From: Perkinsus olseni
Lineage: Eukaryota > Perkinsozoa > Perkinsida > Perkinsidae
Length of the DNA stretch: 64,000 nt
Direction of reading: 5' to 3'
Assembly (NCBI GenBank): GCA_013115135.1
Contig: JABANP010000124.1
Location: 1-64,000, forward strand
Every line of letters starts with the position of its first letter. Position 1 is the first letter of the stretch. Below the pieces are notes generated by a model. The model searched no databases, was not told the DNA's origin, and saw only the letters and a list, made by a program, of their open reading frames with translations. This document shows, piece after piece, positions 2,358-60,329 of this stretch. Position numbers and translations under genes: made by a program.

Positions 2358-5300
2358 TTATTTCCGTTGATAGTTTCTGTAGATGATAGCAGTGAGACTG
2401 ACGGGGTAGAGTAGCAGGGAGCACACGAACATAAAGGCGCTCCAGTACCTTGAAAAATGCAGTAAAATTACCCCTCCCAAGGATCGGAACCAGGGACCTC
2501 CGCTAACTTTGAAACGTGGCAACCGAAACACAAAAGTAAGAAATTTGTGTAGTTAATTTCATTCGAAACAAAAAACGAAAGCGGTACCGGAAAAATAAAA
2601 CGCCAAACCCGCAAATAGAGCAAAAATTTTTCCAGCGCGCATTAAAATGCCGAGAATATCCAAGCCAGGATAGAACCCACGACCTCCCGCTTCAAATATT
2701 ACCATCGTTTCCATCCCGCCATTGTGTGCCTGTCTGAATAGAAGACCTTGCAATACAGGTAGCTGGGCATCACAAAGCACAGCAGGTTGCCGCAGATCAG
2801 CCCCACAAACTCAAATACCGTGCCCAACGACGTAACGACGAATGAGAGTAGCACCACACATAGCAGCATAACCGTAGTCGTAATAAATCTGAAAATGCCG
2901 TCACCGGGGTTCGAACCAGGGACCTTTCGATTACTCACCTGAGTCTGCTCTCGGCCTTATCGCAAGTCGGAGGCTTCCCGTGGTAAATCAAAAGTTCGAC
3001 GCTTCGTCGGCTCGGATGAATCGTCAACGGCAGCGAGAAGCTCACCTGAAAAAGGAATCTTTTTACTCGCCACAAGCATGCTCAACCTAAGTCAAAAAGA
3101 TTCTTCTCTACAACCGGAAATATAATCACACGACCTCACTCAACAAGATTCCCCTAACGCACGCACAAGAATATCTTTTTCCTTCGCCAAACACGCGCTT
3201 CGACCTACCGAAAGCGCTGCCGCAACGTAAGCGATCTTTATCGGAACATCACTCACCGGCATCGACGTCAGGAAATTCGCTGAAAAATGACAACACCGCC
3301 ATTCAAAAAAGCGCGCGCCCTGATGATCGATTACCTCCAACATCCTCACCATACGTCATATAGGGCAGGATCATCGTCGGTAAGAATATAACCAAACCGG
3401 TGGTCACCGCGCTGACGCTCACAAAATTCAATTTCCGAATCGAAACTTTCGGCATTTCCTCGGCGACTTGGAAAAAATTGTGATGGCAGAGGAAAGCGAA
3501 CATGAAGACCGGGAATCTTGCAAGCATGCCCACCAAAGATACGGGCCATAGGGACGCAGAGTCTAGGGATGGCCGAGCGTAGAGGATTGCCAAGATTGCA
3601 AGATATCCAAGTGACACCAGACCGAAGGCGTTGGTGAACCTACGAATGAAATAAACGATGATTACGCTAGGGGAAAATTTTTCCGACTGGGTGAAATCGA
3701 AGAACAGTTCTGAATCAGAAAGACAAGAATAAAATTTCGATTCACAAAAAATCCGCCTCCATGTCGATTTTTTTCCGAAAAATCGTAAAATTTCCCGTAA
3801 ATTTCCCTTCTCACCTTGTTGTCGTCAAACGATGAGCATAAATAACAGGAGAGAGTATCACCACAACTGCGACGATGACCAGCCGTTTCAGAGTTTCAGG
3901 AGCCAACCCAGTAGGGTGGGTATCTTCGATAATCGCAGCGAATAGAGTACCGGCGATGAGAAGAAAACCGACTGATGCACCCAGGCCTTTAACAACCACC
4001 GATAAGTCCACCAACCTGAGAAACGGGAAATTGGATTTGAGAAAAATGTGTCGAAAGGTGATCGCAAAAGGCAATAGTCTCCAGCGGAGACTGTCCACGG
4101 ATAAATTTTCGTTTTCGAATCAAAAATGGAAAAATCATCCGATTGATAACTGTACCAAAATTTTCGGTTCAAGAATGCGATTTGGCGAATTTTGTTATGA
4201 GTTTTTGGCCAAAAAATATACTGATTCCGAAAGCTAAAGAAATTTTTCTTAAAAAATGTCCAGAAGAAACTTCCAGGCCGAAAATATGTTAACTTTCATG
4301 GGTACCACGGATATTCTCAGCCTGTCCGAATTTTCCATGAACAAAAAAATCCCGCAGAAAAAAAATCACGCGAAAGCCGATTTCCAATCCTGAGTCAGGA
4401 TTCCTGACCGTCGAACTCCGTTCAACACATATTCCTAGTGAATTCCAGCTCCGCGTATTTCTGTCAACCACAAGGCGTTGAGGAATTGCAAGAGAGCAAG
4501 TGAGCCAGCGAATCAGCCCTACCAGCGTATCCTGGGGTTGACCAGGCTGGTGACGTTGAAGAAGGACATCATACCGTATGTCTTCGAATCGTAACCTTGC
4601 GCGATGTAGGACATGAGGTAGAGGGAGAACCAACTGGCCACTCCCGCGAAGATACAAAAAACGGCGGCGAAAATTACACCTGAAAAAAGGGAAAATTCGG
4701 AAAAATTTTACGGTCGAATAAACTCACAGTGGTCGCGCCAGATTCGATGAGAAAAAAGGCCGGTGAAAGAGGTTGATTTTTGGGAAAATTTAAACCATTT
4801 CTCGAATTCCTCTCAAAAATGAGGTCGAACCGCGAGAAAAATCATGACGCCAAATTCTCCAAAAATCGCAAAAAAACTATCACCAATCGAACGAGCCCAT
4901 CCAATTCATTGAGAGATTAGGACTTTCCCTTGAAGAGGATAAAATTCCGTCAAACCCAAACTCACCGAATTGCGTAGCAGCAAAGGCCATACCCATCATT
5001 CCGCTGCCAACCAACGTCTTTGCCATAACCGAGTATCTGAAAAACGGTTCCGTGAGAATGAAAAACTGATAAAATGAAAAACATTTTCGCGTTGATCAAT
5101 TCTGCGAATAAGCGGCTCGGAAAATTTTACGAAAAATTTTCGAAAACTTGAATTTCTGGGAAAAATTGTCATGTATATTTCCGATGACTGCCGCACCCTA
5201 CACGATTCAACTTCACCATTTCTGTTTCCTCAGGGACCAATACCATCGAGTGACTAGAAAAAGGAAATTCTAAGGTTTTCACACCAAAAAATGAAAATTT

Positions 5301-5498
5301 CCGAAAAATTTCCGAGAATTTTCGGAAATTTTCGGAAATTTTCGGGAAAAAAGCCGAAACTTACGCTGGTCCAACGCCAGAGAAATCAGTCGGATCTTCG
5401 TGATGCTCCTTAGAGGTGATGGGCAGCAGTGACTCGGCGAGAGAGGCCCGAGTCGAAACCGAGGATTCCGGAGTGCCAACAGGGGTTGAGAGAATCAT
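2358..5498 (-). CDS. AAAP-family amino acid transporter
   Basis: Complete gene of nine exons (5365-5498, 4966-5036, 4523-4679, 3815-4015, 3350-3639, 3209-3279, 2939-3045, 2703-2888, 2358-2448), 435 residues, all junctions in phase. It is a polytopic permease moving amino acids across a cellular membrane, SLC38/AVT-like. Seen: a hydrophilic N-terminus, then KTLVGSGMMGMAFAATQFG (TM1 signature); NPRIRWLVDLSVVVKGLG (TM4 region); PVFMFAFLCHHNFFQVAEEM (TM6-7 signature); SFSLPLTIHPSR; GLICGNLLCFVMPSYLY; and a short C-terminal tail ending YQRK. About eleven hydrophobic segments and the length fit the family. The start is the first ATG of exon 1. Transport direction and substrate cannot be read from sequence. 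Introns 7 and 8 contain tRNA-like modules and intron 3 carries a palindromic triplication. Confidence 0.93.
2471..2503 (-). repeat. tRNA 3'-half-like module in transporter intron 8
   Basis: On the coding strand the sequence runs AGGTCCCTGGTTCCGATCC, then a pyrimidine tract and the acceptor. It resembles a T-arm and is located just upstream of exon 9. Confidence 0.55.
2651..2690 (-). repeat. tRNA 3'-half-like module at the start of transporter intron 8
   Basis: On the coding strand GAGGTCGTGGGTTCTATCC is followed by an acceptor-stem-like stretch, immediately after the donor. It forms the other end of the same intron as the module at 2471-2503. Confidence 0.5.
2889..2938 (-). repeat. 50-nt intron 7 built on a tRNA T-arm-like sequence
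   Basis: This transporter intron starts GTGAGT and ends TTTTCAG. Its middle reads GGTCCCTGGTTCGAACCCCG on the coding strand, which matches a T-stem-loop (B-box GGTTCGAACC) plus the acceptor 3' side. There is no anticodon arm, so it is not a tRNA gene. Confidence 0.75.
4387..4408. repeat. 22-nt inverted-triplication element, U=ATCCTGAC
   Basis: Exact: U(1-7), reverse complement of U, U(2-8). It lies in intron 3 of the amino acid transporter. Confidence 0.9.
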
Positions 5499-6438
5499 AA
5501 AAATTGTAAATATCCCTGAAAATCTCGGTGAATAATTCTGAAAAAAATCGATTCTGGAATTGATTTTTACCCGCGGAATTCGGCCCTAGAATGGATTTTT
5601 AGTTTCACGATCAGTTTATCGAACATTTCCTCAAGTTTTAGTTTTAGTTGATGGCAGAACGCAAGATATATGGAGAAAATACGAAAGAAAATTTACGGAA
5701 AATTCTGAAAATTCACGAAAAAATCTGAAAATTCCCGGGCAAGCACTCCCGTCTCCCGATACGTTTAACGATACGTGATTTCTCGACAAACTATTTCTGA
5801 CGACTTGAGGATACACAAAGCCACGGTGTAGTGTTGTTCGAAAGCACTAGCGTCGAAAAAACGTCACGCGCCACGAAATTATTGATTGTGACGCTGTTGT
5901 TGGACATCGATACCGCCGAGGAATCTTAGGTTGAAGGTGGGTCGATATGAGTATCAGCTGAGTTGAATCTTTTATTAATGATGCAAAGCGCTGGTCGAAA
6001 GTTCTTATACGGAGATGCTGCTCTTGGTAAGGTTTGGGGTATCTTAGGTCGACCCTAGTAAGTTTCAAATAAATTGATACTAGTTATTCATAATACATAA
6101 AATTCGATCAACAATCAGCCCCATCGTTAATTATAAACTCTGAGTATCTTTTATTTCGTGAACTCCTCGCGTAACCACCAGCTTGGATGTCCGCTGAATG
6201 AATGTTGAGCGACGAAACTCAGAAGACCAGTCAAGTTCGATAGCGTCGAAAATTCAACTCCGAAATTTCTTTTTTCAATTATTTTGCCGATCGTGAGGCA
6301 TAACTGAGGCACTCTCGGAGTACTCAAAGACACATTTTGCTTTCCAGATCGATCTTGGAATGTGGAAAGCGCTGAGCCAGCAACAGCGCGATTTTCGCGG
6401 TTTCCCCTCTCCGAAAAACGGCGCTTCACGTATCACGG
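5499..6438. other. intergenic, no resolved gene
   Basis: AT-rich spacer between divergent genes. It contains CGTCACGCGCCACGAAATTA at 5862-5881, also present inside a glutamate synthase intron at 63821-63840. A GGTATCTTAGGTCGACCC motif near 6038 recurs in altered form near 6902 and 14191. Confidence 0.5.
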
Positions 6439-10027: not shown

Positions 10028-10049
10028 GTCTCTAGTAGAGACTCTCTAC
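10028..10049. repeat. 22-nt inverted-triplication element, U=GTCTCTAC
   Basis: Exact U(1-7) / rcU / U(2-8). Confidence 0.9.
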
Positions 10050-10660
10050 GACCCGAAGTCGTCGACGCTCCGTTGCTCTACGTGGTTGTCAAGACCTTCC
10101 TCTAGATCCACAGCAAGGTAGTTCATCTAGCTCTTCTCGGTCCCCTCTCAAAGAAGGCGGTTCGGCTGCGGCCCACGAGGGTCCACAATTAGTCGAGGCT
10201 AACGCTCTTCCTACGGTTAGAAGTACGACTACCACCCGTTCATCAAGGGCATCTACGTCGTCCATGCTGATCCTAGGTGGCTCCTATTCCTCCTAAGGAG
10301 CTTCGTCCCGGTTGGTTTGTTGCTTGTCTCTACCGATGGTTCAACTTACCGAGGGTTGGCAGTTCTAGGCGACGAAGTCAGACTTCGGAAGTCTATGACA
10401 CTGACCTCTGTTAGTAGTAGCACCCGCACTGGTTGACTCAACAACACCTGGGATGGATATAGGATTGAGTATAATGGGAGTTCAAGCTTCCCCTTCCATC
10501 CATTTCAGCCGATGGGCTGCAACCGTTTCATGCAGCGAATAATGGGCGAGTGAGATTCGTGCGTACGCGCGCGAACAACCTCGTACCTCTACGACCGGTT
10601 TCCCTTCTGTCTGCCACCGGCGTGCTATCTACGTTGGACCCTGGGACTGTGTACTACGTC

Positions 10661-10682
10661 CCCAGGTGACCTGGGCCAGGTC
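10661..10682. repeat. 22-nt inverted-triplication element, U=CCCAGGTC
   Basis: Exact U(1-7) / rcU / U(2-8), in unassigned DNA. Confidence 0.9.
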
Positions 10683-12029: not shown

Positions 12030-12051
12030 GTATGGTCACCATACTATGGTG
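12030..12051. repeat. 22-nt inverted-triplication element, U=GTATGGTG
   Basis: Exact form, in non-coding DNA of copy A. Confidence 0.9.
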
Positions 12052-12234: not shown

Positions 12235-12256
12235 TACGTCGCCGACGTAACGTCGG
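12235..12256. repeat. 22-nt inverted-triplication element, U=TACGTCGG
   Basis: Exact form, in an intron of copy A. Copies B-D differ at the same place and lack it. Confidence 0.88.
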
Positions 12257-12784: not shown

Positions 12785-12806
12785 ATCGCCAGTGGCGATT
12801 CGCCAC
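12785..12806. repeat. 22-nt inverted-triplication element inside exon 5 of copy A, U=ATCGCCAC
   Basis: Exact form. Copies B, C and D carry the single octamer ATCGCCAC at the same exon position (about 18450, 23230 and 31480). The 14-nt gain shifts the reading frame of copy A. Confidence 0.95.
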
Positions 12807-13827: not shown

Positions 13828-13849
13828 CTGTACGGCGTACAGTATACGC
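13828..13849. repeat. 22-nt inverted-triplication element, U=CTGTACGC (one change)
   Basis: The third copy reads TATACGC instead of TGTACGC. Confidence 0.75.
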
Positions 13850-13901: not shown

Positions 13902-13923
13902 GGTACGCGGCGTACCGTACGCC
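13902..13923. repeat. 22-nt inverted-triplication element, U=GGTACGCC
   Basis: Exact form. Confidence 0.9.
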
Positions 13924-14070: not shown

Positions 14071-14551
14071 CTACAAGAAGAACATGTATAGAGAGAGCAT
14101 CAGGAGACAATGATGCAGACAACAGGCGTGACCCCCGTGCGGCGAGGCTAGTGGGAATCCCACTGTGGGATGATTTTTACCTCGGGGACCTGGTATCTTA
14201 GCTCGGTCCTTGTTAATGGCGGGTGAAACGATTCTGTGGTATGGGTTCTGCGAGAGCCAGCTTCCGCATACCGGCCCAGGTCCGATGATTCTGCAATGAG
14301 TTGCCGCTTTGATTTCCTCGTTGGCAATGAGTCGTTGCCACCAGTGTAGTCCCAATGATGGTCGGTGCTGAGAATCGAGTCATGCTGAGGAGAAATATAA
14401 TTTTCGACCGCACCAGCGAACTGCGGAGCCCTAAGGATGGGAAAACGTCCAACCTTCTGAGGCGAATATCATTAGCCCGAGTATGACCCGAGCTGAAAGA
14501 GACAGATACCACAGAAGAGTGATTCTGTGCGTGAGACGATTGTCGGGTCAT
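14071..14551 (-). pseudogene. glyoxalase II pseudogene fragment
   Basis: The minus strand repeats glyoxalase II intron 3 and exon 4, including a corrupted metal motif (DHHWDYTGGN) with a 14-nt insertion after GGN. It continues into an inverted piece of the intron 3 start (compare 6873-6912). Exon order is scrambled and there is no open frame. Confidence 0.75.
14150..14171. repeat. 22-nt inverted-triplication element, U=AGTGGGAT
   Basis: Exact form in the glyoxalase II pseudogene. The intact gene has GGTGGGAT once at the matching intron position, near 6876-6883. Confidence 0.92.
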
Positions 14552-15240: not shown

Positions 15241-15246
15241 TGGTGT

Positions 15247-15365: not shown

Positions 15366-15998
15366 AAGATACAACTCTTATCGCGAATGATTGACACGAG
15401 TGCATTGTGTAACATGCAACTAGCATGAGGATTTGATAGATGTTAGACGTTGATTTTCTCATCTGGTCTTGTCGATGAGGATTCTTTCGAATCCGCCTTG
15501 AGACTCAAGGCTATAGTGAAGAGCCGTTCCTGGAGTTAACTTTCATATGTGACTCAAACGGGAGTCCCGTTACGGAACTCGATGCATCAACGGTTTGGCC
15601 AGAGCGACGATTTTTGAGGTAGAGAGAAAGTTCTTGGAAAGAGAATCTGAAAAACCTCTCTTGATCACTACACAATGATCATGAAAACCTCCGTCGCGAG
15701 ATTATCAGAAGACTTCAAAATTCTTGTCATGTTCCCAACCCTTCTTTGAGTTGTGCTGAGCCATATAGTTAACACAAGAGTAGAGGTTGAATCAAACTCA
15801 AAGTACTCTCGATGAAAACGAATAAGTAATAAATAGAAGATAGCAATAGGACCTATCAAATAGGCCGGATACGCTCATTAACTCTTGTGAGTTTACTCTT
15901 TCTGGCTCGAATAGGAAATAAACTGGATTTTTAGAACTTGCTACTACTGAAAGCAATTCTAAGTCTCTGTCGCAGACTTCCCTGAGATGAGGAGAAGC

Positions 15999-18900
15999 TC
16001 AGTCGCTCTTCCACAGGTTTCCGGAGAGGTAGGCATAAAATCCCTGTTGCACCTCACGAGGCTTGTATAGCGGAATAATGTGACCGGCATTTGTTACCTA
16101 AACACAAGTCGACAGGATGGTGCCGACAACGGTTACACCGCGAACGCTATTGTAGTTCAGGTAGTGTAATACACTAAGTGTGTCGCAACTACACCATTTC
16201 CAGACCTACTTAGTATAACCCCAAAGTCTCGGGCCCAGAGCAAATCAGTGAAACCCCAGAGCAGTTTAATGAAGCCCAGAGCAAATTAGTAAAACCTCCA
16301 AGCAATTCAATGAAGCCCAGACCCAATTAGTAAAACCGCAGAGTCTGGGCCTTCACAGTAAAACCCCATTCTAAGACCTACTTAGTAAAACTTTTACCAA
16401 GTAGGTCTTGAAATGATGTGGACAGACACTGTCTGTCAGACAGAGCTTAGCTCTCAGAGCCACATACCTCGATGAAGGCGAGTCTCGCTTGATTCGGATA
16501 CTCGAGAGCTCTCATCTTTCCGAGCTCGACTCCTCCAAACTGAGACAGGAACGACTCATCACAATCATGGTGATCAGTGAGTGATCCGACCTTGACTGGG
16601 GTAGGGGGGACGCCTCGCAACTTCTCGCCGTACTTGTCGGCTCCCTTCAAGTTGAGCACCCAAGTTTCGGCACCAACAGAATTTGTTATATAGTCCTGGT
16701 CCCCGTTCATGACTAGTACCTAGTGCAGGACTATACCATACAATAACATTCTTCGGTCACAATGATGAGCTGCGTGGGAGGTATGCCTTTCACGAATCTA
16801 GACTACCAGATAATGGAGCAATGCTGAGTCGTCAACACTGCAGACCCCCCACCCGCTGGAATGAAGCCAGAGCTCAGCGGATGATTTCAAGACACCCTTC
16901 TCCCTACTTTAAACCCTTTGTCAAGGAGGCTGGTCACAAAATAAGTCGTATTATAGGCCGTATATTTGTTGTAGGCGTGAAAGACCTTATGAGGAAGGCA
17001 AGCTCGGCGTGGACCTTGTTGAACAGCCACAACCTCAGCATTAGAACGTTCCCATTTCTTCGAGACGCCGAGCTCCTGCTGGATTTCCTGGTCGTTGAGG
17101 AAAGTATCAACCTAACAGTACAGGAGAGCACAATAGTTTAATTCGTCGGGCTGGCGCGAGGGTGCTCAACGTGAAGAGCGGAACGGAAAAAGAAGCAAAC
17201 AGTCAGTACTGCAATAATAGGAGTTTCATTTGAAGTTCAAATTTTGAACCGACAATGCCACACTGTGGCAGCCACAGCTTACTGGCCAAAACTTGAGGAA
17301 GTACTTAGCCTTCTCTTGGCCATCTAGTACACGGACGTCGTAACTGAGGCGGGCCGGTCACAAAAAGTACCGCAGCTAATGCTATCCATTCAAAAAAATT
17401 GAATTTTGGAGCAAGACCGGACCCGAAAGATCAGAATTTGGCAGAACTTTCGAGCGGTGTGAGTATCGCGGAATAGCTCCCACTCCCCTTACGGAACAAT
17501 GGATTTTTAGTCATCGACCACTAAGAGTCAAATTCACACAGCGACCGAAGAACGGCACTGAGATTCCGGAGGAGCACGTGGAAAGTCTTCCTGGTGAGCG
17601 AAGAGCAGTTGATGACAGCTTCTGCGGTCGCTGATTTATCCCTGCCGCTGTTGGCCGTGTGAGCCTCTTCTGTGAATTCACAGAGTAAATTCTTTAGAAC
17701 TGTGTGGCGTATGCTGCCAATGGCAGCCTGTCATGAGTCGTGGACATTTACGCAGACATTCATGGACCATGTACGAGGTAGCTCGTCTCCGAGCAGAGTT
17801 AAGTCCAATCGCCAGGCCGCTCACTAGCTTCTTTTCTTCTTTTCCAACGGGTTGAGTGTCGCATCATCGCAGGTCTTCACAGCTCGGTTGCAGAAGGCTG
17901 AAAGGAAAATGTCGGCGGAAAGAGCCGTAAGTCGGGAGGTGAGGAACTCCAACTACCCGAAATTGGAGGTTTTCCTGGTCCATTTGAGTTGCACTGTCCA
18001 ATCTGCGTATCACATTGTTGAAGGTCCGCGGTCATTTTGGATACCCTGAAACGCGCCAGTAACTTCGCCATAAAACAATCATGAGAAGCTCAACTCCTCT
18101 TTAGGAAGCAAGTGTCGGGCATCGGCCATGCGCACAGCTCCACGGTAACTGAGCACCGACATCATATGGCATAACTCATTTTTTGGAACGAGGGTTGACG
18201 GCGGAAGAAGGCTAAGCACACTATTGTTCACTGGCTTCCAATTAGGGCGGCGCCCATTGAGCAGAAACACGTGACTTAATGTACCATGGACTGCTCGATG
18301 TGCGAGGGAACATTTCAGTCGATGCTCGCATGAAGATGACGGCGATACAGAATACTCACATGCCAATCGGTGACACCACACCAGATATCAGCATCACACC
18401 TACGATGTGAACCTGGGGTTGAGGCTTCGCGGCGAGTCGAGCTGCAAGCATCGCCACGAAGGCAGCTGAAATGGCCGGGCATTCCCGTGACTACAACGGC
18501 TCTCATCTCACCTGAGGATGAAGTACCGACGAGGTGCACGTTTCTATTGAAGGTTGGATTCTGCTGAGTGAACTTGGTGATAACATCGACCCCTGCAGGA
18601 TGAAGAGTCCATAAGCGAAGTATATCAGCTGGCGTCATTGTAGCTCACATATCCAGTATGAAGTCCTCCAAGCCTCGAGTGACTGGTCCTACACTGAAGC
18701 CTGTAGGAGCCGGCGCATCTATCCACACACCATTGGCTTGGGCCGTCCATGAGTAACTTTCGAGATACGTTTCACTCGGGACAGGGACTCAATGCCACAC
18801 AGGGACTCACAGATTGAGTCTCAGACGTCGAGTGACGAAATCTCTTATGCATGGTCCATTCAGTTGTAGTGCCGCGGCAACGCTGCTGCCGCCGGGTCCA

Positions 18901-19785: not shown

Positions 19786-19807
19786 GTATACGACGTATAC
19801 TATACGC
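19786..19807. repeat. inverted-triplication element, hexamer TATACG
   Basis: The three hexamer blocks are exact; one spacer base departs from the rule. Confidence 0.75.
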
Positions 19808-20391: not shown

Positions 20392-20413
20392 TACCCGACT
20401 CGGGTAACCCGAA
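20392..20413. repeat. inverted-triplication element, hexamer ACCCGA
   Basis: Hexamer blocks exact. The same, more decayed element is present in the paralogous flank at about 28388-28409, so this insertion predates the duplication. Confidence 0.8.
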
Positions 20414-21498
20414 GGATAATAGTTCGAAGGGTCATCACTCTGTGCTTCGCGGACCTCATGCTCTCTAAGTGAACCACCGGTAGAACCTGGGCAATTTCAC
20501 TGGAGCCTCGGCTCGGAAGAGTCGGTAGGGTCTGACCAAGTACAGCTCCGACATGTTTGCGCGAACACAACGCACAAGCGAGTAGCTGTCTCGGTAATAC
20601 CGAGTCGGCATTGACTTCCCAGCATCAAGGACTTCCGTCGAAATTCCGCAGATCCTCACTTTATCACTGCAAAATGATCTAAAAACTTCATTGGAGAGAA
20701 ATACGGCACGGTTTCTTGGAGGAGAAATCGATTTGCTGGGGATAGAACCCTGGCTTGTCGGTGAACCTGGTTGGATACCGGGCATGCGCTAAGTCGGATT
20801 CGGGCATGAATGGTGCGGAGGTAGGAATCCTTCGGAAGCTTCAGGCACGGCTTCGCAACAGGAGCTAATGGTGCCCTTCGGCACTGATTTTTTTCTTTCT
20901 CAAAATAATCCCTTGATGTTGGGGGACTAGAGATGAGATGACTGTGTGGTCAACACGCGAGTAGCTATCCCACTACAGTCACGCTCAACCTCTGGTCTGT
21001 ATTGCCAAACTCAGGCCCCGGTTTTCGGGCCTCGGGTTTGAGGTTTGGTCAATACCTCGCCCATCCCCAGCGTCTATGGGATTTCTCGTAGCGAGATTAT
21101 CACTATTCTTGTAAGGTTCCCAACCTCTCTTTGAGTTGTGCTGTGCCATATAGTTAACACAAGAGTAGAGGTTGAATCAAACTCAAAGTAATCTTGATGA
21201 AAACCAATAAGTAATGAATAGAATATAATAATAGGACCTATCAAATAGTTCGAACACTCTCGTTGACTCTTGTGAGTTTACTCTTTCTGGATCGAATAGA
21301 AAATAAACCAAACTTGCTACTACTGAAGGCATTTCTGAGTCTCCATCGCAGGCTTCCTAAAGTTAGGCAGATAAAGGTCAGTCGCTCTTCCAGAGGTCGC
21401 CGGAGAGGTAGGCATAAAATCCTTGTTGCAACTCGCGAGGCTTGTACAGCGGAATAATGTGACCGGCATTTGTTACCTGAACACAAACGGACAGGATG

Positions 21499-21520
21499 GT
21501 ACCGAGTCGGTACTACCGAC
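21499..21520. repeat. 22-nt inverted-triplication element, U=GTACCGAC
   Basis: Exact form. Copy B has GTGCCGAC once at the same place (near 16120). Confidence 0.93.
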
Positions 21521-23044: not shown

Positions 23045-23080
23045 GTTCGATCATCCGATGATCATCATCGAACTTCGATG
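23045..23080. repeat. nested inverted-triplication elements
   Basis: The inner element at 23049-23070 has U=GATCATCG and is exact. Removing its 14 extra bases leaves an exact outer element with U=GTTCGATG. Copies A, B and D have only a single TCGAYG-type site here, for example near 18295. Net gain is 28 nt. Confidence 0.92.
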
Positions 23081-25774: not shown

Positions 25775-25796
25775 TATATAGCCTATATAATATAGG
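25775..25796. repeat. 22-nt inverted-triplication element, U=TATATAGG
   Basis: Exact form; first of three within 100 bases. Confidence 0.9.
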
Positions 25797-25800
25797 CCAG

Positions 25801-25822
25801 GCTACAAATTGTAGCCTACAAT
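25801..25822. repeat. 22-nt inverted-triplication element, U=GCTACAAT
   Basis: Exact form. Confidence 0.9.
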
Positions 25823-25844: not shown

Positions 25845-25866
25845 GTGGTCAATGACCACTGGTCAT
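25845..25866. repeat. 22-nt inverted-triplication element, U=GTGGTCAT
   Basis: Exact form. Confidence 0.9.
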
Positions 25867-26169: not shown

Positions 26170-26692
26170 ACGCTCTAGTCGAGTCTCTGCCCTCCTCCGT
26201 TGGCGCTTGCGGCTCGCCCGGCAGGCCGCTGACGGTGTGCATCACCCCTTCGTCTACCCGAATAAGGCATAGCGATGGGGTCGACCACACCGAAAGCGGT
26301 CTCTAGGGGAGGGCCCTGCTCACCCCTGTGGCTGTTACAGGGTGAACGCAGCGGTCTTCGGACCCAATTGCGGGGCAGCAATGGCTGCCAGAGCCTCCGG
26401 CCCAGACGCGAGGCGACCCTTGGCAAGGGAAGCAGCTGGTTTACGGGGGACAGTCCGACGGCTTGCCAGTTGACATTTGATTTCTTTCCGTGCGAAGAAA
26501 TGTCCGAAATGTCCGATGTCGGCAACGCCTCCGTCCACGACAATGCCAGCAACGCGGGAGACAAACGCCTCGATCAAGGTGGTCGGACCACCGTGGTCCG
26601 GGCTTCCCCCAGCCAGCCGAGTTCGCCGTACAGGGCGATGGCGGTGACCGTCCTGCGGCGGTCCAGGACGCAGCCCAGCAGCCTGCTGAGGC
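26170..26692. other. GC-rich segment abutting the copy E stub
   Basis: Clearly GC-richer than its surroundings, with overlapping long open frames on both strands (as GC-rich DNA often gives). No domain recognised. Confidence 0.45.
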
Positions 26693-26791: not shown

Positions 26792-26813
26792 CTAAACCGG
26801 GTTTAGTAAACCC
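26792..26813. repeat. 22-nt inverted-triplication element, U=CTAAACCC
   Basis: Exact form. The flank of copy D has CTAAACCC once near 32373. Confidence 0.95.
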
Positions 26814-27216: not shown

Positions 27217-27238
27217 TTCCGGTAACCGGAACCCGGTT
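27217..27238. repeat. 22-nt inverted-triplication element, U=TTCCGGTT (one change)
   Basis: The third copy reads CCCGGTT. Confidence 0.75.
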
Positions 27239-27551: not shown

Positions 27552-27573
27552 GTGCCTAGTAGGCACTGCCTAC
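27552..27573. repeat. 22-nt inverted-triplication element, U=GTGCCTAC
   Basis: Exact form. The copy D flank has GTGCCTAC once near 32516, and the copy B flank has ATGCCTAC near 19468. Confidence 0.95.
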
Positions 27574-38690: not shown

Positions 38691-38712
38691 GGTACAGCCT
38701 GTACCGTACAGG
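38691..38712. repeat. 22-nt inverted-triplication element, U=GGTACAGG
   Basis: Exact form, about 0.35 kb upstream of the RPS4 start, in the divergent promoter region. Confidence 0.9.
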
Positions 38713-42180: not shown

Positions 42181-45100
42181 TCAGTGTGTCGCCGATCCGT
42201 GGATTGGTCCAAATGGATGGTAGCCAAGGCAGTTAATCAACTGAGATGACTCTACAGCAGTCAAGCCAGGGCGCAACGCCGACCGAAGGGAGCCGAGCAC
42301 TGAAGATGCGCCCAAGCAGGCCGCACAGTATCTGACAAGAGGCGATTCAGTCAGACTTCGAAGAGGAATCCTACACGGTGCGGACCGCATCAACCTCACA
42401 CAGGGCCGCTACGACTTTTTCCGTGACGCTATTGGAAGCTCTCCTCAAGTCGAGTTTCCACATACTGTGGATGATGCTGAGAATGAAGGGTGCGGTCTTG
42501 ATAGATATCGAATCGTTTATCATATTCGCCAGACACAGCTCGAGCGCCTCGGTTTCCGCCGGGCGGAGCTGCAGCCGGGCCAGTCCGGCCAAACCTACGA
42601 AGCGAACTCATTGGCAATGCCTAGCTGCGTATGCGATAAATGAACATTATGTGCTGAACGATACAAGCACGGTTACAGTACTAGCCGCAGCGGAATGACA
42701 GTACTAGTAAGCGATCGGGCGGAAAAGAACCGAAACATTCTCAGTCGATTCTGATGCGGATAACATGGAGCGGTCGTACATTGGCTCGACCGGTCAAGAT
42801 CTCTCGCAGTAAAGCGGGAGGCTGAACTGGCTCGAAGTAGACAGCTGACAATGGACTCCGCCACAGGCTCACAGAACCGACTGGGGAAGCATTATGGGGC
42901 TCCTGTCATCTGAGAAGGGCAAAAACTCATCCACAACGAGACGCCCATCCTCCGAACACAGAAAAAGATTCCACATTTTTGAAGTCACCAATATGATAGA
43001 GCATTAGGTCACAGTCTTGACCGAGGAGTAGCCTTATCCAGCCTTAGCCACTTCCCGATCAATTCCAATCACTGTCACTTCAGTTCCATAGATTTCAGGT
43101 GATCGACATTTCGACTTCCACCGAAATTTGTGAAGGGGAACTGACAATTTTTGAAATTGATCCGCAAATGGTGTAGGTGTGTGCGTACAGCATATTGCGC
43201 AGTAGTGATCTATCCTTCTGCAGCGTAGAGCAACTCTTGCACGCACATAAGGAGCCACTCTTACTCCAACCCTCAATAGCCAGTGGGCTACACGGCTACC
43301 CGAAACATCACAGTCATTAACTTCCTTAAAGTCGACTGCGAGGAGGAACTATCGAATGAAGCCGAGACAGGCTCCAACAATCCCACCTCCATCCGCCTCC
43401 ACGCCACTTGTTAACTTGACCAGTATCGAAGTAGCTGTCGCTGCATCAACCAGGTCCAGTCGATCTCCAGCGGCAACAACCGCCCTCATAACCCTTTCCA
43501 AAAGCTCCGAGACCTTCTCCCGCTTTGGCTTCATTTTCGCCAGAGCCAAGCAAACCGCAAAGATTCGCGAACTCGACTTAGTATCTTTCAGTGCGCACTT
43601 CGAAAGGTCGTCAACCAGATTCGAGTAGCTCTCCCAAAGCTCACTCGGGAGACGCGAGATCGACCTCAGGATTCTCGCAGCCTCGGCGGAATCAGAGCAT
43701 CGCAACCTCCCTATTCGGTCAAGAACTTGCCGAGCTGAGTCGATGTCTTTGCCACGTTCGCAAACGCCCAGAAGCATCGTTTGGAGGTTCAAGGGAAATC
43801 CGTCGGTGACTGGAAGGAGCTCTCGCAGTAAGCCTCGGTCCGGTTGAAAAAGCGACAACATGTGCAGCGAGAAGACCAGGGTTCGTGGCTCGTAGTCGGA
43901 GTAGTTTTGGCGAAGATGGTCGCAGCACTGGGTGATCATATTGTTCGTTCGTTCACTCGCAGGCTGCCCCGGCTTCAAGATCGACCCACATGCCCGGAGA
44001 ATACTGAAGCTCTAAGAGGGAAGAAAACTAGTCGTAAATTCTTTCCTTCTGGATCGGGTTGACTGTGGCCTACATCGATCGCTGCGAAGGGCTGCTCAGG
44101 ATCGATCCGACCAGCGAGATCTTCCAGCAGTTCCCGAGAGGCCTTCACGTCTGCATGGCGATCACCGCACGCGCCGGCTAGAATGTTGCTCACTGACCGA
44201 GGGGACAGTCGTAAAGTCGGAGGGGTTCGACCTGACAGCGAAGAGAAAATTACGGGTCCTTCCGTCCTTAGACGGGCATTTTGTACAAGTCCTTAGAGAT
44301 ACCAGGTTCTTAGAGAGAAATTAACACCAGAAACTACGCTGTGATGAATAGCAGTGAAGCGGTTCAGTGAGTTCGGGAGAGAAGGTGAACTAATGAGAAA
44401 CTTGCCAGTCCCCCTCGATGGTGTCTGGCAGTTGAGTTCTCTGTTCTGCGAGTGGGGAACTCACTCAGTCGCCGAGCCAACGCCGCAACAACATCTTCCT
44501 CTACACGTCCGGTCAGCTTCAGCAGAGGCAGTGAGATGCTCCCCAGGATGAGGCCTGGACGATACCGCTAACATCCCAAAGGTCCCCGGATCGAATCAGG
44601 CGGACGGCGTTTCTCCGCCTTACCTGTAACTTCTTGTGAATCATCCTCGAGGAGTCTAACAAACTCCGGGACGGCGGCTCGGGCGAGGTCCCGGGCTGGC
44701 GCCTCGCACTGGTGCAGTGTAGTGAGCAATGCTGACAGCTCGTTAAGACTAAACTCCCGCAGCCATACTGTCTGAACGGTCTCGCATACGACCGCCAGCA
44801 TCTTCGTAACCTGGTGAGGGAAATACTGCGCAGGTTCAATTCCTGGAGCCAGCACTTCTTCCTCCTTTTTCGCACCCTCTGCTGAGCTCAGCATCACGGC
44901 GAAGGCGTGTGTCAACACCGGGAACTGCTGAGTGTCCGTAAACTCTCGAATCTGCAATATGCCATTGGCATAATGCCAATGAAAAGAAGATTCCCGGAAG
45001 ATACCATACCTACATTCGTTCGAACAAACTTGGCCAACTTGGAGATCGTAGAAGATTCGACCTGACAGAAAAAGCAGTCCGATCGACGCAAGAGAGTCTT

Positions 45101-46233: not shown

Positions 46234-46985
46234 CACAGCAGCCACCGTTTTGAGAGAGCTAGCCGACGTTTTTTGCATGTTAATTATAAGCTGGTCATAA
46301 AACTACTTCTCCGAGTGGCACGAGCTTCAGCCTTCTGGCGAGAAGTTCTGAATTTTCTGAATAGTCAGAAATGCTCGAAATTCATTCCAATGAATTTCAA
46401 ATCTTCTCGTGCGACATCAGATGAGCGAAATGGCCGATCAATCGGCTAATATCAATACACTTCCAAATCGCACTCGAAATTCAGACTGAAACACTCGGTA
46501 AGGCAGAGATAATCCAAATTCAGGGATTTGCGTACAATTGTATCGAATTGAGCCACCCAATCCGTCCACTGAACGCAATCCACTCAAGTAGATCACAAAC
46601 CCGAGGATATCTCTTGAAAACGAGAGTGGCCAGTGAGAGAAGAATGCTCGATAGCTCCATGCTGACCGATGACCAGGGCAAAACATTCTTGACACTGCAG
46701 CGTGAATCCGCCTAGGTCTGTGTACCTGAGATTCTCAGGCTGAGAAGAGCTGTTCTAATTGAATAACGGAGAAATTATTCTACTGAAATGATGTAATTTG
46801 CATGCCAAACTAGCACATACAGTAGAACGAAAAGAATAAATACACAAAACATTCCGGCCATGTTCGCAATCGAAAAGGAGTTTCGTTTTGATTGCACTCG
46901 TTCAAAGTGTTAGCTCATTTGCCGATCTTTCTCGGTGGATAAACAGGCATTCCAATTCGAGAGTTCACTAGCCTTGACGGGGGAA

Positions 46986-50541: not shown

Positions 50542-53500
50542 CTACTCTAACATTCGTCTTATCCGGCCTAGGGTGAGTAGGCCGCTATGCCAACTCTGGA
50601 GGATGTCACAATAGGGAGCAAAGACAGCAATATGGCGATAGGGTCGATATAGGGACATCCATCCAACTGGCGAAGTTCGCCAGTTGGGTGAGGCCGCTAT
50701 ACCAGCGTTTCGTTGTCCATGAGGAACAACAGAGAGGCCCTGCCCACCACGTATCTTCCTCTCAAGCCAGCCCACAGTCCCAGGATCCTGGAACCATTCC
50801 GCAATGTAAAGACCCCGGCCAGCAATGGTGTCCTCGATAATCCGGCTCATCTCAGTTCGAAAGTCTTTCCTCGTTGACCAGCCTGAGAGCGATAGCGCAA
50901 GTTCTGCAGACATCAGGGCGTTACCGCCCTGAATGACGGAGAGTCGCTATTTCCCGAGTCTCGCTAACCGGAAAGATCCCTTCTGTTGGCTCCAGGCACC
51001 ATGCTCACAGATTGACCCAAGTCCGTGACTCACGGACCGTCAGCGGTGAATAATCCGCGTCTTATCTTAGATGAGACCTAAACTAGACTGCTGAAGACGA
51101 GAAAGCACTACGGTGTACGCGAAGCCACAGTATTGGTGGTGATAGTAGTTCGTTATGACCTAGTACAGCCCCGCTTGAGTAGTGAATTTTTACGATATTT
51201 TCATCAGAAAACACAACCCTCCCAGCGAGAGCGCCAGGCAGGCCTCCTGCACCCAACTCACCCAATACCGCCTTCGCCTTGCACGTGTCCGCCAGAGTGC
51301 CCCTCAAGTCGTTTTTCCTTGCAGGCAGTCGCTTCTGATTCGGCGATACCAAGTCCGCAAGCTCCTGCGAATCCACGATCGTCCCAGGGACGTGGGACCA
51401 TCCGAACTTCACTACGGCTACGGCGTATCACAGAAGGACTAATGAGGCGAGCGACAGCGGAGTTCCCCTTTCTTCTGCACACCCAAGATTCCGCGGTACT
51501 AAATAATCGCCCTTCAAGTTCAGCCCATTCAGGATAATATTCGGACGCCAACTTCGTGACCACGACACTTTGATGACGAGTTGAGGTTCCGAGCGTAACG
51601 GCTCAGCTCACCTGCACAGTATGAGCTTCCCCGCTGCCGAGGTTTATCGGCTGACCGCCTCTGACTCTATCACTCTGATAGGCCAGTGTGATTCCGCGAG
51701 CTATGTCCTTCACGTGGACGAAGTCCCGAAATTGAAGGCCGTCTCCTACAGAAATAGCACGCTGATGCTCCGCCAGCATCCAGAGACGCGTTGCTGGAAT
51801 GTCTTTCTGGAAAATTTCAAAATTTTCCTGTGGGCGAAACGGGGATACACCACCTAGCAGGCAACACCCATTCTAGCTCACCTTCAATCGTCAATGGCTC
51901 GCCCCTTTCCCTCTGACCAGCAAACACGCCAGTGACGATGGCGTACGCACCACTACGAGGCTGCCTCGGACCGTAAACCATGAAGAAGCGTAGGGATACA
52001 GTGGCGAGATTATATACCCTAACATACGAGCAGTGCACGTTCCTCCAGTCGACTGGCGTTGAGAAAAATCAAGGATTTCCCGTCGAAGTCCAACAGTCAC
52101 TAGTGGCGGGAGGCGGGCTAAGCCGAGGAGAACTGCAGTGCCATACACGAGACTAACAGGGTGGGCTTAACACGCGTTCCGGTACGCCTCCTCCCCACCT
52201 ACTTATCAAATGTCTGCATTTGTAGTTCTCCCATGGCTTTGCTGGCGCTGTAAGGACTCGAAGGCTGAATAGAAAAGAAGCGATACACGACCGTCTCACT
52301 GTGGCGCCGCGGCCATCAACAGATGTATACAAAATTTAAAATAGAATAGTAACATCGAGAATACGGGAGAGCCTTCCCTCACTGGGAGCGAGCTTCGAAC
52401 GCAAAGAAGCCATGAGAAGGAAACTCAGTAGTGAGGGAGGTATCGTCGCCAGGGCAGCACAGCAGAGCCAGAGGAACTCCTTTCCCTATCACAGTCCGCC
52501 ACCAAGATAATTTTCAAAACGTATCAATAGCTATTCGGTAATCTTGTACAAAAGGACGTGGCAAATATGGTGTTGCACTCTTCTTCCCAAGTCCACCAGA
52601 GTGTAGAGAATCTCGGGTACGGGTTTCCAGCGTCACCACAAGCCGTAACTCCCTGCTCTTCGTACCATCGCCTCCAACAACGGTGTACGTAACGGATGGC
52701 GTGAGTAGTACAAGGGCCCGGCTCTACTGCGGAGGACATTTGACAGAGTTTACGGACAATGAATGGCAATGCACGCCAAAGCTGTTGCGTTAGTTTCTCG
52801 GGCCAGCGTCGGTCGTACTTTAGTCTGAACACACGTAGCAAAATCCGACAGTCCCGTCACCAAAGTCATCCTTTGAAGCGTACTCGTCCCAGCTCTCGTA
52901 GAAATCGTCGGACAAATACATGCCCAGCCGCACAGTTTGCAGCGCTAACAATCTCTCCTAGCCGAAATAATGCCTCCTAATCGGTGTAGGCTCTCACAAC
53001 AAGAACCCCAGGAAAGTGCGCTTCCTGAGTATAGCGCCACGACTTACCGTGCGCGCGGACCAGCGCGACCAGCTTCCTCTCGGTCCGCATCATCCCATCG
53101 CTGGTAGCTACGCCGACGTTGGTTAACAACTACGCGGCCGGACCTACGCTGGGGCTTAGCCTCGGCCTAAGGCCGGGTGTGTCTCTCCTGGGCTAGCCCC
53201 CACCCAGCCGGTCTACACAGTGTGTAGTACACACTCCACTCTACTGGTCTTAGCCATCAACCAGCGGGTGCCTTCCTATATACACCATCAGCCATCCACG
53301 TCGATAGCGTGCGCCAGAGTTTTGTCATCATGAAAGACGGCACCTGGCTCCTCCGCGGGACGCAGCGAAAAGGGGCCAGCAGCAGAACGTATCACCAATG
53401 GTGATTCACCATCCGTCAATCTTCACGATTCGAAGTTGGTCAAGCCGCACCGGACAGCAACATTTGCTCAGCAAATCGCTCTCGGCCTGTCGTACCCAAA

Positions 53501-54843
53501 ACGGATCCGTAGCGGGTAACGTTTCGTTCTGCTCGTTCTATAAGACCTCGCCGTATATGAAGGTGCCTTGGCATTAGGCGCTCATGGACGACGAGTCTCG
53601 TCGGACGAGATTTCTCGAGGTCATGCGCGAAATAACTCCATCAGCATGATTTACTCGATACAATATACAATGTGGGATATACTCTATCCCTCACACGATT
53701 CCGAAAAACGCGCCGCAAATTAGACAACACGGAGAAGACGCTCGAAGCTACGCAACCTGTATTACCGAGAAGTGATCCGTTTCCCTATACGGCAAGTCCT
53801 GGTTCCCGTAGAAAGTACTACTCGCTGCAAATATCACTTTCCGAACCTGAAGAGACCTGGAACTCACGTAGCCGAAAAGAGCTGAGCATGATACGGCGAG
53901 CGCAGATCCTTCATTGGAACGGCATCTTAGACTCAGACACGGCCTGCGGTTCCGCAGCGGAGATTCTCTCACGAAGATCATAAGCACACAGAACTGCGCC
54001 CTCCAGCTCACCGTTCCACCTTGCTGCGCTACTTCAAGTACGTTAGCCGTACCAACCGAGTTCACATTAACATTGAAAGTCGCCATAGTAGAGTTCTTCA
54101 AGCTCGGTAGCACCTAGAGGAACGAATCGTATATGATAGAGCCGACGCCAAGATGGAAAAGGCTTCTCCCGCGATTCGACACCTTGGACACAATTCGCGC
54201 TGATACTGTAAGCAAAGTCATTAGTAATGACTCATTACCAGCGGTCGCGTCGAAGCAAAAACCGTCTGCGAGAAGCGAGTACCAAACGACCCTCCACAAA
54301 AGGGGCGTACGTATCGTACGGTACGATAAGAAATTACGTTGAGAAGTGAGAATGTATGTGCGCACAATAAGAAGAAAGGATGTAAAATCTCCTCAGAATA
54401 TATCCCTCGTAAACTAAGGCTCGTGTGATTGTAACGACTGATTCATTATACTACCTTGCTTGCAGCTGCCAGGTGAATCACGCCAGTGACGCCTTCCATC
54501 GCTGCCCGTAGAGCCTCCATGTCCATGATATCACCGTATCGAAATTCCAGCCGAGGGTGGTCCAGCGGCAGATACTGGATGTTACCTATCGCTTGGGCCA
54601 CTGATCGAGTTCTCTGTAGCTCTCACGTGAAGAACAACGGACGTGAGCCCTACAGCAAATGCGAGCGAAGCTAACGCGTTGAACGAAGCAAGAACAAAAC
54701 GTAGTATTCCTCATTGGTGGGTGAAGTGCTAGACTCGCTTCCCCCCGTCCAAAAATACCTGTTACGAGATTATCGAACACTCGCACTTGGTAGCCCAAGT
54801 CCAGCAGATCCTCCACCAGGTTTGAGCCGATGAATCCCGAGCC
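50542..54843 (-). CDS. NAD-dependent sugar-nucleotide epimerase/dehydratase (extended SDR)
   Basis: Exons 54759-54843, 54455-54585, 54012-54113, 53766-53846, 52203-52264, 51882-52018, 51612-51745, 51262-51364 and a probable last exon from 50903 to about 50542, all in phase. The first exon with the extreme N-terminus was not found. Seen: GSGFIGSNLVEDLL (Rossmann GxxGxxG partly on the missing exon), VFDNLVTG, GDIMDMEALRAAMEGV, VIHLAAASK, FAASSTFYG with the catalytic Ser/Thr, SPYSASKAMGEL with the YxxxK pair, LRFFMVYGPRQ, RDFVHVKDIARGI, INLGSGE and TLADTCKAKAVL. This is the UDP-glucose 4-epimerase type; the exact substrate is undetermined. Probable role: making activated sugars for glycans. Palindromic triplications sit in its introns. 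Confidence 0.88.
50663..50687. repeat. 12-bp perfect palindrome with 1-nt centre
   Basis: CCAACTGGCGAA, G, and its exact reverse complement. It lies near the 3' end of the epimerase. Confidence 0.85.
51022..51043. repeat. 22-nt inverted-triplication element, U=TCCGTGAG (one change)
   Basis: The third copy reads CCGTCAG. In the last epimerase intron. Confidence 0.8.
53213..53234. repeat. 22-nt inverted-triplication element, U=CTACACAC
   Basis: Exact form in a long epimerase intron. Confidence 0.9.
53391..53412. repeat. 22-nt inverted-triplication element, U=ATCACCAT
   Basis: Exact form in the same epimerase intron. Confidence 0.9.
53455..53476. repeat. inverted-triplication element, hexamer AGCAAA (imperfect)
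   Basis: The first block is AGCAAC and one spacer base departs from the rule. Confidence 0.6.
53589..53610. repeat. 22-nt inverted-triplication element, U=CGACGAGA
   Basis: Exact form in the same epimerase intron. Confidence 0.9.
54217..54238. repeat. 22-nt inverted-triplication element, U=GTCATTAC
   Basis: Exact form in an epimerase intron. Confidence 0.9.
54306..54327. repeat. 22-nt inverted-triplication element, U=CGTACGAT (one change)
   Basis: The first copy reads CGTACGT. Confidence 0.75.
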
Positions 54844-60065: not shown

Positions 60066-60307
60066 TGGCACTCACGGTAGTTTAGCCTGCCGTTTCATAG
60101 TTTATCAATTTATTCCTGTCTTGTGAGTCATGGAAGCCTGAATATGATCTTGATGATGTCGTTGTGTGAAGCTACTCAGTCTTTGTGTTCAGTTTCGAGC
60201 CAACGGGTTACAGCGCACGTAGGACGCACCTCGTGGCAGCCGCCGTCGAAATAGACCGTCCATAAAAACGAGACATGATACACCTTGCCATGTAGCGATG
60301 GATTAGG

Positions 60308-60329
60308 CTCACCAATGGTAAGTTACCAT
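60308..60329. repeat. 22-nt inverted-triplication element, U=CTTACCAT (one change)
   Basis: The first copy reads CTCACCA. Confidence 0.75.

What the first reader, a model, noticed from the sequence alone, without database searches (positions are those of the whole stretch)
4387..60329. A family of 22-nt inverted-triplication insertions with an exact rule
Seen by eye at about 30 sites exactly: octamer U becomes U(1-7) + reverse complement of U + U(2-8), a net gain of 14 nt. About ten more sites have one or two changes. The octamers share no consensus, so the insert is templated by its own target rather than being a copied element. The chance expectation for exact matches is about 64000 x 4^-14, near 0.0002. 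Sites lie in introns, intergenic DNA and pseudogenes, and not in exons of intact genes. I know of no described element with this structure. Possible causes are a double template switch between nascent strands, or repair of a staggered break with 6-nt overhangs. A defined enzyme would explain the fixed 8-nt size.
Basis: partly seen in the sequence, partly recalled or inferred. Interest (0 to 1): 0.95.

Follow-up and report, generated by a model that had tools for sequence, protein, structure and literature searches.

The report
Scars of excised hAT jumping genes
The odd 22-letter sequences are scars left where hAT transposons (cut-and-paste jumping genes) once sat and were cut out; the kind of scar is known, but in this protist one exact form of it dominates and it is very common.

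Summary
The window holds 42 exact copies of U(1-7).rc(U).U(2-8), all at unit length 8; lengths 6, 7 and 9-15 gave 0, and shuffles gave 0 at length 8. 200 kb from elsewhere in the same genome gave 48 more. Copies of the same DNA at 95-100% flank identity lack the insert and carry plain U.

The interpretation changes. These are best read as excision footprints of hAT transposons. An 8-bp target duplication with flank hairpins closing one base inside it predicts this product when the opened hairpins anneal through the duplicated 8 bp.

Support: octamers prefer the Ac/Hermes target pattern nTnnnnAn; hAT transposase domains, 12-nt TIRs and 8-bp TSDs are present. At the window scar 10373-10394 a sister contig carries a dispersed hAT-type MITE between one-base-centred palindromes, and two further MITE copies have such flanks.

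The source is probably Perkinsus olseni (one protein). The class is known. What is unusual is one dominant 22-nt product and a density that extrapolates, roughly, to ten thousand sites per genome.

The parts
4387..4408 (.). exact footprint, U=ATCCTGAC
10028..10049 (.). exact footprint, U=GTCTCTAC
10373..10394 (.). exact footprint, U=CGAAGTCT; sister contig C500 carries a 584-bp hAT-type MITE at this site
10661..10682 (.). exact footprint, U=CCCAGGTC
12030..12051 (.). exact footprint, U=GTATGGTG
12235..12256 (.). exact footprint, U=TACGTCGG; homologues without the insert at 81-84% identity, U changed there
12785..12806 (.). exact footprint, U=ATCGCCAC; empty paralogues at window 18370-18537 and 23150-23318
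13902..13923 (.). exact footprint, U=GGTACGCC
14150..14171 (.). exact footprint, U=AGTGGGAT
16422..16443 (.). exact footprint, U=ACAGACAG
17228..17249 (.). exact footprint, U=ATTTGAAC; empty paralogue near 11766 read by eye
17256..17277 (.). exact footprint, U=TGCCACAG; empty paralogue at 11770-11860
21499..21520 (.). exact footprint, U=GTACCGAC
23049..23070 (.). exact footprint, U=GATCATCG, inside a 28-nt insertion relative to L028
25335..25356 (.). exact footprint, U=CTCAGCAC
25515..25536 (.). exact footprint, U=GTGTCAAG
25775..25796 (.). exact footprint, U=TATATAGG
25801..25822 (.). exact footprint, U=GCTACAAT
25845..25866 (.). exact footprint, U=GTGGTCAT; absent from the 99.4% identical copy L028, which carries plain U
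26578..26599 (.). exact footprint, U=GGTGGTCC
26792..26813 (.). exact footprint, U=CTAAACCC; paralogue with plain U at 32290-32421 (73% identity)
27552..27573 (.). exact footprint, U=GTGCCTAC; shared with L028; homologue without insert at 19388-19553 (one base of U differs)
27818..27839 (.). exact footprint, U=CTGTACTG, in a tandem 127-bp duplication
28163..28184 (.). exact footprint, U=TCCAAGGT; homologue without insert in L028 at 95.8% (one base of U differs)
28422..28443 (.). exact footprint, U=CGAAGGAG; homologue with plain U in L004 (78% identity)
29716..29737 (.). exact footprint, U=TACCTAGT
31654..31675 (.). exact footprint, U=CCAGCTAG
32856..32877 (.). exact footprint, U=AACCTAAG
33185..33206 (.). 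exact footprint, U=CACGGATC
33321..33342 (.). exact footprint, U=CCCAGTGC
33598..33619 (.). exact footprint, U=CCTCCGAC
34774..34795 (.). exact footprint, U=GTCGTAGT
36088..36109 (.). exact footprint, U=ATATGCGT
38691..38712 (.). exact footprint, U=GGTACAGG
42055..42076 (.). exact footprint, U=CTCGGATG
44958..44979 (.). exact footprint, U=TATGCCAA
45570..45591 (.). exact footprint, U=ATTCTGTT
46725..46746 (.). exact footprint, U=CCTGAGAA
53213..53234 (.). exact footprint, U=CTACACAC
53391..53412 (.). exact footprint, U=ATCACCAT
53589..53610 (.). exact footprint, U=CGACGAGA
54217..54238 (.). exact footprint, U=GTCATTAC
13828..13849 (.). footprint with 1 mismatch
15557..15578 (.). footprint with 1 mismatch
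16162..16183 (.). footprint with 1 mismatch
17713..17734 (.). footprint with 1 mismatch
19786..19807 (.). footprint with 1 mismatch
20392..20413 (.). footprint with 1 mismatch
20590..20611 (.). footprint with 1 mismatch
26948..26969 (.). footprint with 1 mismatch
27217..27238 (.). footprint with 1 mismatch
27945..27966 (.). footprint with 1 mismatch; second copy of the 27818 site in the 127-bp tandem duplication
30579..30600 (.). footprint with 1 mismatch
32433..32454 (.). footprint with 1 mismatch
34369..34390 (.). footprint with 1 mismatch
51022..51043 (.). footprint with 1 mismatch
54306..54327 (.). footprint with 1 mismatch
27424..27458 (.). 35-nt odd palindrome, arms 17 around one T (centre 27441): candidate scar of a deeper-opened hairpin
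50663..50687 (.). 25-nt odd palindrome, arms 12 around one G: candidate deeper-opened hairpin scar
24688..24712 (.). 25-nt odd palindrome, arms 12 around one T: candidate deeper-opened hairpin scar

Best explanation
Each 22-nt site is the scar of one excision of a hAT-superfamily transposon, perhaps often a short non-autonomous MITE. Step 1: the element inserts with an 8-bp target-site duplication U (shown for two MITE copies and one transposase-bearing copy). Step 2: on excision the transposase cuts one base inside the flank on one strand, and each flank closes as a hairpin whose tip is one unpaired base, the complement of U8 on the left and of U1 on the right (chemistry recalled from work on Hermes and Ac; palindromic flanks of this kind are seen here at three MITE-bearing sites). 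Step 3: the hairpins are opened several bases from the tip, giving single strands that read rc(U) on the left end and U on the right end. These are complementary because both come from the same duplicated octamer (inferred). Step 4: they anneal, gaps are filled or flaps trimmed, and ligation gives U(1-7).rc(U).U(2-8) whatever the exact opening points, as long as the two openings overlap (inferred). This explains the fixed 8, the one-base offsets, the absence of other lengths and the self-templating. A microhomology end-joining route is the likeliest for step 4 (inferred).
For: Unit length 8 only. T2/A7 target pattern: both in 21 of 84 distinct sites against 5.0 expected, p 1.5e-8; the Hermes pattern nTnnnnAn is in passages of PMC10368747 and PMC2803484. 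Exact empty sites with U unchanged, e.g. window 25845 against L028 (99.4% identity), L044 against L041 (100%), L041 against L044 (98.2%), L045 and L047 against each other, L029 against L043. In 11 alignments of near-identical copies (21.7 kb aligned), the indel length spectrum peaks sharply at 14 nt: 16 events, against 0-5 for any other single length above 4 nt. All 16 fit the rule with at most 2 mismatches, 9 exactly. hAT dimerisation domain PF05699 at 21 places, all over the cut-off, found again in 2 of 2 proteins re-scanned. Sister contig C500 at the 10373 site holds a dispersed 584-bp element between odd palindromes of arm 31 around A and arm 20 around G, the G lying exactly on the complement of U1. 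Other copies of that element have TIR CAGACCTGCGCA (or one base different) and 8-bp TSDs GAAAATAG and GCATCGGG; one has ATTGAGG[A]CCTCAAT beside a truncated end with intact ATTGAGGT on the other side; one has CAGTTGTTG[G]CAACAACTG and GGCAACAA[C]TTGTTGCC, both consistent with U=GTTGTTGC. One-base-centred palindromes with arms of 10 or more: 10 in the window (7 outside footprints), against 0 for loop 0 and 1 for loop 2.
Against: Only one of 42 exact window sites was linked to a resident element. Experimental hAT footprints elsewhere are heterogeneous (28 types in 128 Candida clones, longest P insert 3 nt, PMC5873905 passages), whereas here one type dominates; no other spacer length is enriched in the strict footprint scan. 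In C500 the left palindrome lacks four central bases of the simplest prediction and the element's ends are not intact. Of the 6 other MITE copies whose ends were read, only 2 have clean TSDs; 2 are hairpin-altered, and 2 are one right-truncated copy present twice. The cognate autonomous element was not delimited: a matching TIR lies downstream of a transposase domain in C325, but no second TIR was found. Of 33 distinct insertions of 8 nt or more, 17 are not 14 nt long, and 12 of those 17 do not beat their shuffled controls in a hairpin-model check; the same check failed for 2 of the 16 of 14 nt (CAATCGAT, AACGGAGA), although both fit the rule exactly (I put this down to gap placement, untested). 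The 80 indels shorter than 8 nt were not put through that check, so short footprints may be missed.
Confidence: 0.94

Rival explanations
1. Replication-associated double template switching between nascent strands makes local inverted triplications; no transposon is involved.
For: The product is formally a forward-reverse-forward copy of 8 nt.
Against: Template switches should give a spread of lengths; only 8 is seen. It does not predict nTnnnnAn, nor an element sitting at the same site with palindromic flanks.
Confidence: 0.02
2. Another 8-bp-TSD transposon class (Mutator-like, P-like) makes the scars by a different route.
For: Muta1 of Aedes makes 8- or 9-bp TSDs (PMC5225508 passages).
Against: Muta1 excision with TSDs is mostly precise (same passages); hAT domains, hAT-type TIRs and the hAT target pattern are present here. 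Other transposon classes were not searched for in this genome.
Confidence: 0.03
3. Assembly or whole-genome-amplification artefact.
For: Chimeric palindromes are a known artefact of amplification (titles and abstracts in listing); raw reads were not available.
Against: Fixed length 8, target preference, a gradient of decayed copies (42, 16 and 13 sites with 0, 1, 2 mismatches against 0, 0, 0.05 in shuffles), the same scar shared by two sister contigs and by both units of a tandem duplication.
Confidence: 0.01
4. The 22-nt sequence is itself a mobile or functional element, inserted by a dedicated enzyme.
For: Exact repeated architecture.
Against: 84 distinct sites carry 82 distinct octamers, so nothing is copied between sites; every base is given by the target octamer.
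Confidence: 0.01

Closest known systems
Ac/Ds (hAT) excision footprints in plants, yeast and Candida albicans (P-nucleotide palindromes)
   Same: Inverted repeats centred on the complement of the bases bordering the transposon, explained by hairpin resolution; microhomology at the joins in 85-100% (Arabidopsis) and 88-89% (yeast) of footprints, as quoted in PMC5873905 passages.
   Different: There: many footprint types per experiment, P inserts of at most 3 nt in Candida, arms up to 20 nt in yeast as quoted there. Here: one full-TSD 22-nt product dominates and lies at high density in a natural genome.
Hermes (hAT)
   Same: 8-bp TSD with preference nTnnnnAn (PMC10368747 and PMC2803484 passages).
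   Different: The elements here lie in a protist and were not compared with Hermes by sequence; their chemistry was not tested.
TcBuster (hAT)
   Same: Hairpin-type footprints (PMC3499496 passages).
   Different: Its target pattern nnnTAnnn is not seen: 1 of 84 against 5.0 expected.
Introner elements of Amoebophrya
   Same: Short DNA-transposon-like elements with inverted and direct repeats in a parasitic dinoflagellate (PMC7789003 passages).
   Different: Direct repeats of 3-5 nt and whole elements retained as introns; no 8-nt self-templated scars in the passages seen.

Membership tests
hAT excision footprint | Palindromes centred on one base, the complement of the base that bordered the element | tested here: met
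   All 42 exact sites by construction of the rule; one-base-centred palindromes far exceed loop 0 and loop 2; three MITE-bearing sites show them beside the element, one of them with four bases missing on the left
hAT excision footprint | 8-bp target-site duplication | tested here: met
   GAAAATAG and GCATCGGG on both sides of two MITE copies; GTCCGGAG beside TIR TAGAGATGGGCA in L032
hAT excision footprint | Hermes-type target pattern nTnnnnAn | tested here: met
   T2 39/84, A7 40/84, both 21/84 against 5.0 expected; a preference, not a strict rule
hAT excision footprint | An element occupies the same site in another copy | tested here: met
   One site, 10373, against C500; not shown for the other 41
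hAT excision footprint | Element-free copies carry U once | tested here: met
   27 of 121 sites had a homologue without the insert; in 12 of these 27 at least one of the up to three homologues printed has U unchanged, in the rest U is mutated or gapped; some rows are one event seen on two contigs
hAT superfamily (genome content) | Transposase with C-terminal hAT dimerisation region | tested here: met
   PF05699 at 21 places; 2 of 2 proteins re-scanned
hAT superfamily (responsible element) | Autonomous copy sharing TIRs with the MITE | tested here: inconclusive
   TIR 0.86 kb beyond a hAT domain in C325, other TIR not found
hAT excision footprint | Hairpin intermediate | not testable with these tools
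   Inferred from products
Ac/Ds-like footprint spectrum (typical, not defining) | Heterogeneous products | tested here: not met
   Strict scan: only the 6-nt spacer class is enriched, 110 against 2-12 for the other 30 spacers; indel spectrum peaks at 14 nt. Footprints shorter than 8 nt were not tested
Template-switch mutation | Variable unit length | tested here: not met
   Only 8

The most novel reading that the evidence does not exclude
This protist heals hAT excision breaks by a near-deterministic route, far more uniform than reported for plants, yeast or Candida: hairpins are opened well away from the tip and the ends are joined by annealing the 8-bp target duplication. Excision is so frequent that these scars are among the commonest short insertions in its genome. 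Past insertions could then be read to the base, and excision might even be part of a regulated programme.
Probability: 0.27. Interest if true: 0.75.

Novelty: new variant of a known kind. Interest (0 to 1): 0.55.

Why it matters
If right, a 22-nt pattern scan gives a base-precise record of past hAT visits in a genome, including elements long gone, with an age signal from decay. It makes the open question of how hairpin ends from hAT transposons (and, by analogy, V(D)J coding ends) are opened and joined testable by genome reading: product uniformity reports on the opening distance and on annealing-based joining. It also accounts for a recurrent 14-nt, frame-shifting insertion type in this genome.

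Tried and rejected
Template switching, a self-mobile 22-nt element, an amplification artefact and other transposon classes were considered (see rivals). I began with a vague memory of palindromic 'Star elements' in Perkinsus; searches (listings only) showed nothing of that kind and I dropped it. A search for other strict footprint spacers (0 to 30) found enrichment only at 6. A scan of the loci then held for 8-bp TSD plus TIR gave 11 rows, several of them chance or repeats; the clearest was L032, with L020 6361-6787 (TSD CTGCGGCC, TIR CAGCATGTGCC) a further candidate not followed up. Pfam scans of 20 window open frames gave matches at E 0.01 in 5, of which 4 have a match above the family cut-off; too few to test exon avoidance. 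DNA-repair context: DRMBL (SNM1/Artemis/Pso2 group) one match at 64 bits, Ku one weak match at 28 bits, DNA_pol_A 9 matches, one in a 1441-aa open frame; none of these identifies the pathway. Papers: PMC5873905, PMC4763223, PMC3499496, PMC5225508, PMC10368747, PMC2803484 and PMC7789003 were seen as passages only; others as search listings. The primary hairpin papers (Zhou 2004; Coen; Yu 2004; Lazarow 2012) are recalled or quoted through PMC5873905, not read. Not having found this product described for Perkinsus rests on the listings of searches of an open-licence library; it may be in print elsewhere. On re-checking I lowered the probability of the novel case from 0.30 to 0.27, because PMC5873905 reports that microhomology joins are already common in yeast and Arabidopsis.


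Full report
What is there. A scan of the 64-kb window for U(1..k-1).rc(U).U(2..k) finds 42 exact sites at k=8, 25 at k=4, 1 at k=5 and none at k=6, 7 or 9-15. Shuffled windows explain the k=4 and k=5 counts (15.2 and 1.0 on average) and give none at k=8. Allowing mismatches at k=8 the window has 16, 13 and 29 sites with one, two and three, against 0, 0.05 and 2.5 in shuffles, so there is a tail of decayed copies. 20 further 10-kb stretches of the same 61.5-Mb, 968-contig assembly hold 48 exact sites, again none at 7 or 9-15 (one at 6). Leaving out one stretch chosen for homology to the window, it is 35 in 190 kb, in 12 of 19 stretches. Scaled to the genome that is about ten thousand, a rough figure because the stretches were not a random sample. 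E. coli, 50 kb, gives none.

They are insertions. In the window, 12785 ATCGCCAGTGGCGATTCGCCAC faces plain ATCGCCAC in paralogues at 18370-18537 and 23150-23318, and 17256 faces plain TGCCACAG at 11770-11860. Across the loci then held (sites too near a locus end left out), 27 of 121 sites had a homologous stretch without the insert; in 12 of the 27 at least one of the up to three homologues printed has U unchanged, in the others U is mutated or gapped, and some flank identities are as low as 70-80%. The cleanest are nearly identical copies: window 25845 against L028 at 99.4%, and pairs among transposon loci at 90.6-100%. In 11 alignments of such copies (21.7 kb of aligned bases, 95-100% identity) the indel length spectrum is 46 of one base, falling to 11 of four, at most 5 for any length from 5 to 13, then 16 of exactly 14 nt, and 1-2 for any greater length seen. 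All 16 fit the rule with at most two mismatches, 9 exactly. There are 33 distinct insertions of 8 nt or more (one 22-nt row appears twice and is counted once). A separate check of each against a general hairpin model beat its shuffled controls for 14 of the 16 and for 5 of the other 17; it failed for two 14-nt insertions that fit the rule exactly, which I put down to gap placement. One 24-nt insertion fits the same scheme with longer inverted copies, 11 and 9 nt, joined at two shared bases (U=TGGACTGG). The 80 indels under 8 nt were not tested this way.

What it is. Written as U1-7, u8', u7'..u2', u1', U2-8, the structure is two overlapping palindromes, each centred on one unpaired base: the complement of U8, then the complement of U1. 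That is the published description of hAT excision footprints: inverted repeats centred on the complementary bases of the nucleotides bordering the transposon, from hairpin resolution (PMC5873905 passages). hAT elements duplicate 8 bp on insertion (PMC4763223 passage). So the element leaves two hairpins that both end in the same octamer, and once opened their single strands are complementary over that octamer. Annealing plus filling or trimming gives the 22-nt product from any overlapping pair of openings, which accounts for the exact length. The step from hairpins to this single product is my inference.

Independent tests. (i) Target preference: among 84 distinct sites, T at position 2 in 39 and A at position 7 in 40, both in 21 against 5.0 expected (p 1.5e-8); T is scarce at position 1 and A at position 8; the Buster pattern nnnTAnnn occurs once against 5.0 expected. 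nTnnnnAn is the Hermes pattern. (ii) hAT transposases: PF05699 at 21 places, all above the cut-off (the 14 control genomes had none, but those named in other searches are all bacteria, so this control says little); L035 has a 581-aa frame with DUF4371 and the hAT dimerisation region. (iii) Elements: L032 has TIR TAGAGATGGGCA on both sides with 8-bp TSD GTCCGGAG; that TIR 12-mer occurs 35 times in the genome against 5 for the reversed control. (iv) Deeper palindromes: in the window one-base-centred palindromes with arms of 10 or more number 10 (7 outside footprints), against none with loop 0 and one with loop 2 (the 7 are listed).

The occupied site. In a search with window 10000-14400, contig C500 matched up to query 378 and from 381 on, with about 630 extra bases between, at the scar 10373-10394. 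The fetched stretch shows left flank, an odd palindrome of arm 31 around A, 584 bases, an odd palindrome of arm 20 around G, right flank. The G is the complement of U1 with U2-8 after it, as predicted. The left palindrome is centred on A but lacks four bases of the simplest prediction (CGAAG[A]CTTCG rather than CGAAGTC[A]GACTTCG). The 584 bases are a dispersed repeat: 22 matches including itself, 6 other copies covering nearly its full length at 75-89%. The ends of those 6 copies were read; compared with them, the C500 copy has lost a few bases at both termini. Two have perfect 8-bp TSDs and 12-nt TIRs (CAGACCTGCGCA or CAGGCCTGCGCA at the left, TGCGCAGGTCTG at the right). One has ATTGAGGT on the right but ATTGAGG[A]CCTCAAT beside a truncated left end. 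One has one-base-centred palindromes on both sides that agree on U=GTTGTTGC. Two are one copy, truncated at the right, present twice. The 12-mer CAGACCTGCGCA occurs 28 times in the genome against 2 for the reversed control. I read the altered copies as excision intermediates into which the element was joined back; this fits but is inferred.

Source. The L035 transposase is 95% identical over 74% of its length to a Perkinsus olseni protein and 69% over 73% to one of P. chesapeaki. The genome is therefore probably P. olseni or a close relative, an identification resting on that one protein. Long matches to contigs C485, C500 and C579 at 88-99% identity suggest haplotypes or recent duplicates.

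What stays open. Which hAT families made the scars; why one product dominates when Candida gave 28 types in 128 clones; whether the host opens hairpins far from the tip. Microhomology at such joins is already reported for yeast and Arabidopsis (quoted), so what stands out here is the uniformity. A single SNM1-group match, a weak Ku match and several polymerase-A matches are compatible with microhomology joining but do not show it. Exon avoidance is not established.

Verdict. Its unusual uniformity and abundance make it a new variant of that class.

Noticed in passing
window 27812-28068: Tandem duplication of 127 bp, 98% identical; one unit carries an exact scar and the other the same scar with one base changed.
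   Followed up: partly
window 10410-10576: Probable solo LTR (TGTTAG...GAACA, 5-bp repeat ACCTC read by eye); a repeat of about 170 bp matching many places at 82-95%.
   Followed up: no
window about 10000-34000: Array of diverged copies of a gene-like unit, also on C485, C500, C579, C330 and C646; the part of the window richest in scars.
   Followed up: partly
L020 6361-6787: Candidate second MITE family: TIR CAGCATGTGCC, 8-bp TSD CTGCGGCC, 411 bp.
   Followed up: no
window 38864-39894: Ribosomal protein S4e gene in at least two open stretches (Pfam RS4NT, Ribosomal_S4e), which hold no scars.
   Followed up: no
window 56583-57665, minus strand: 361-aa open frame without a Pfam match.
   Followed up: no
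window 19955-20000: 46-bp stretch that splits a repeat relative to the 127-bp unit (read); no TSD or TIR recognised by eye.
   Followed up: no
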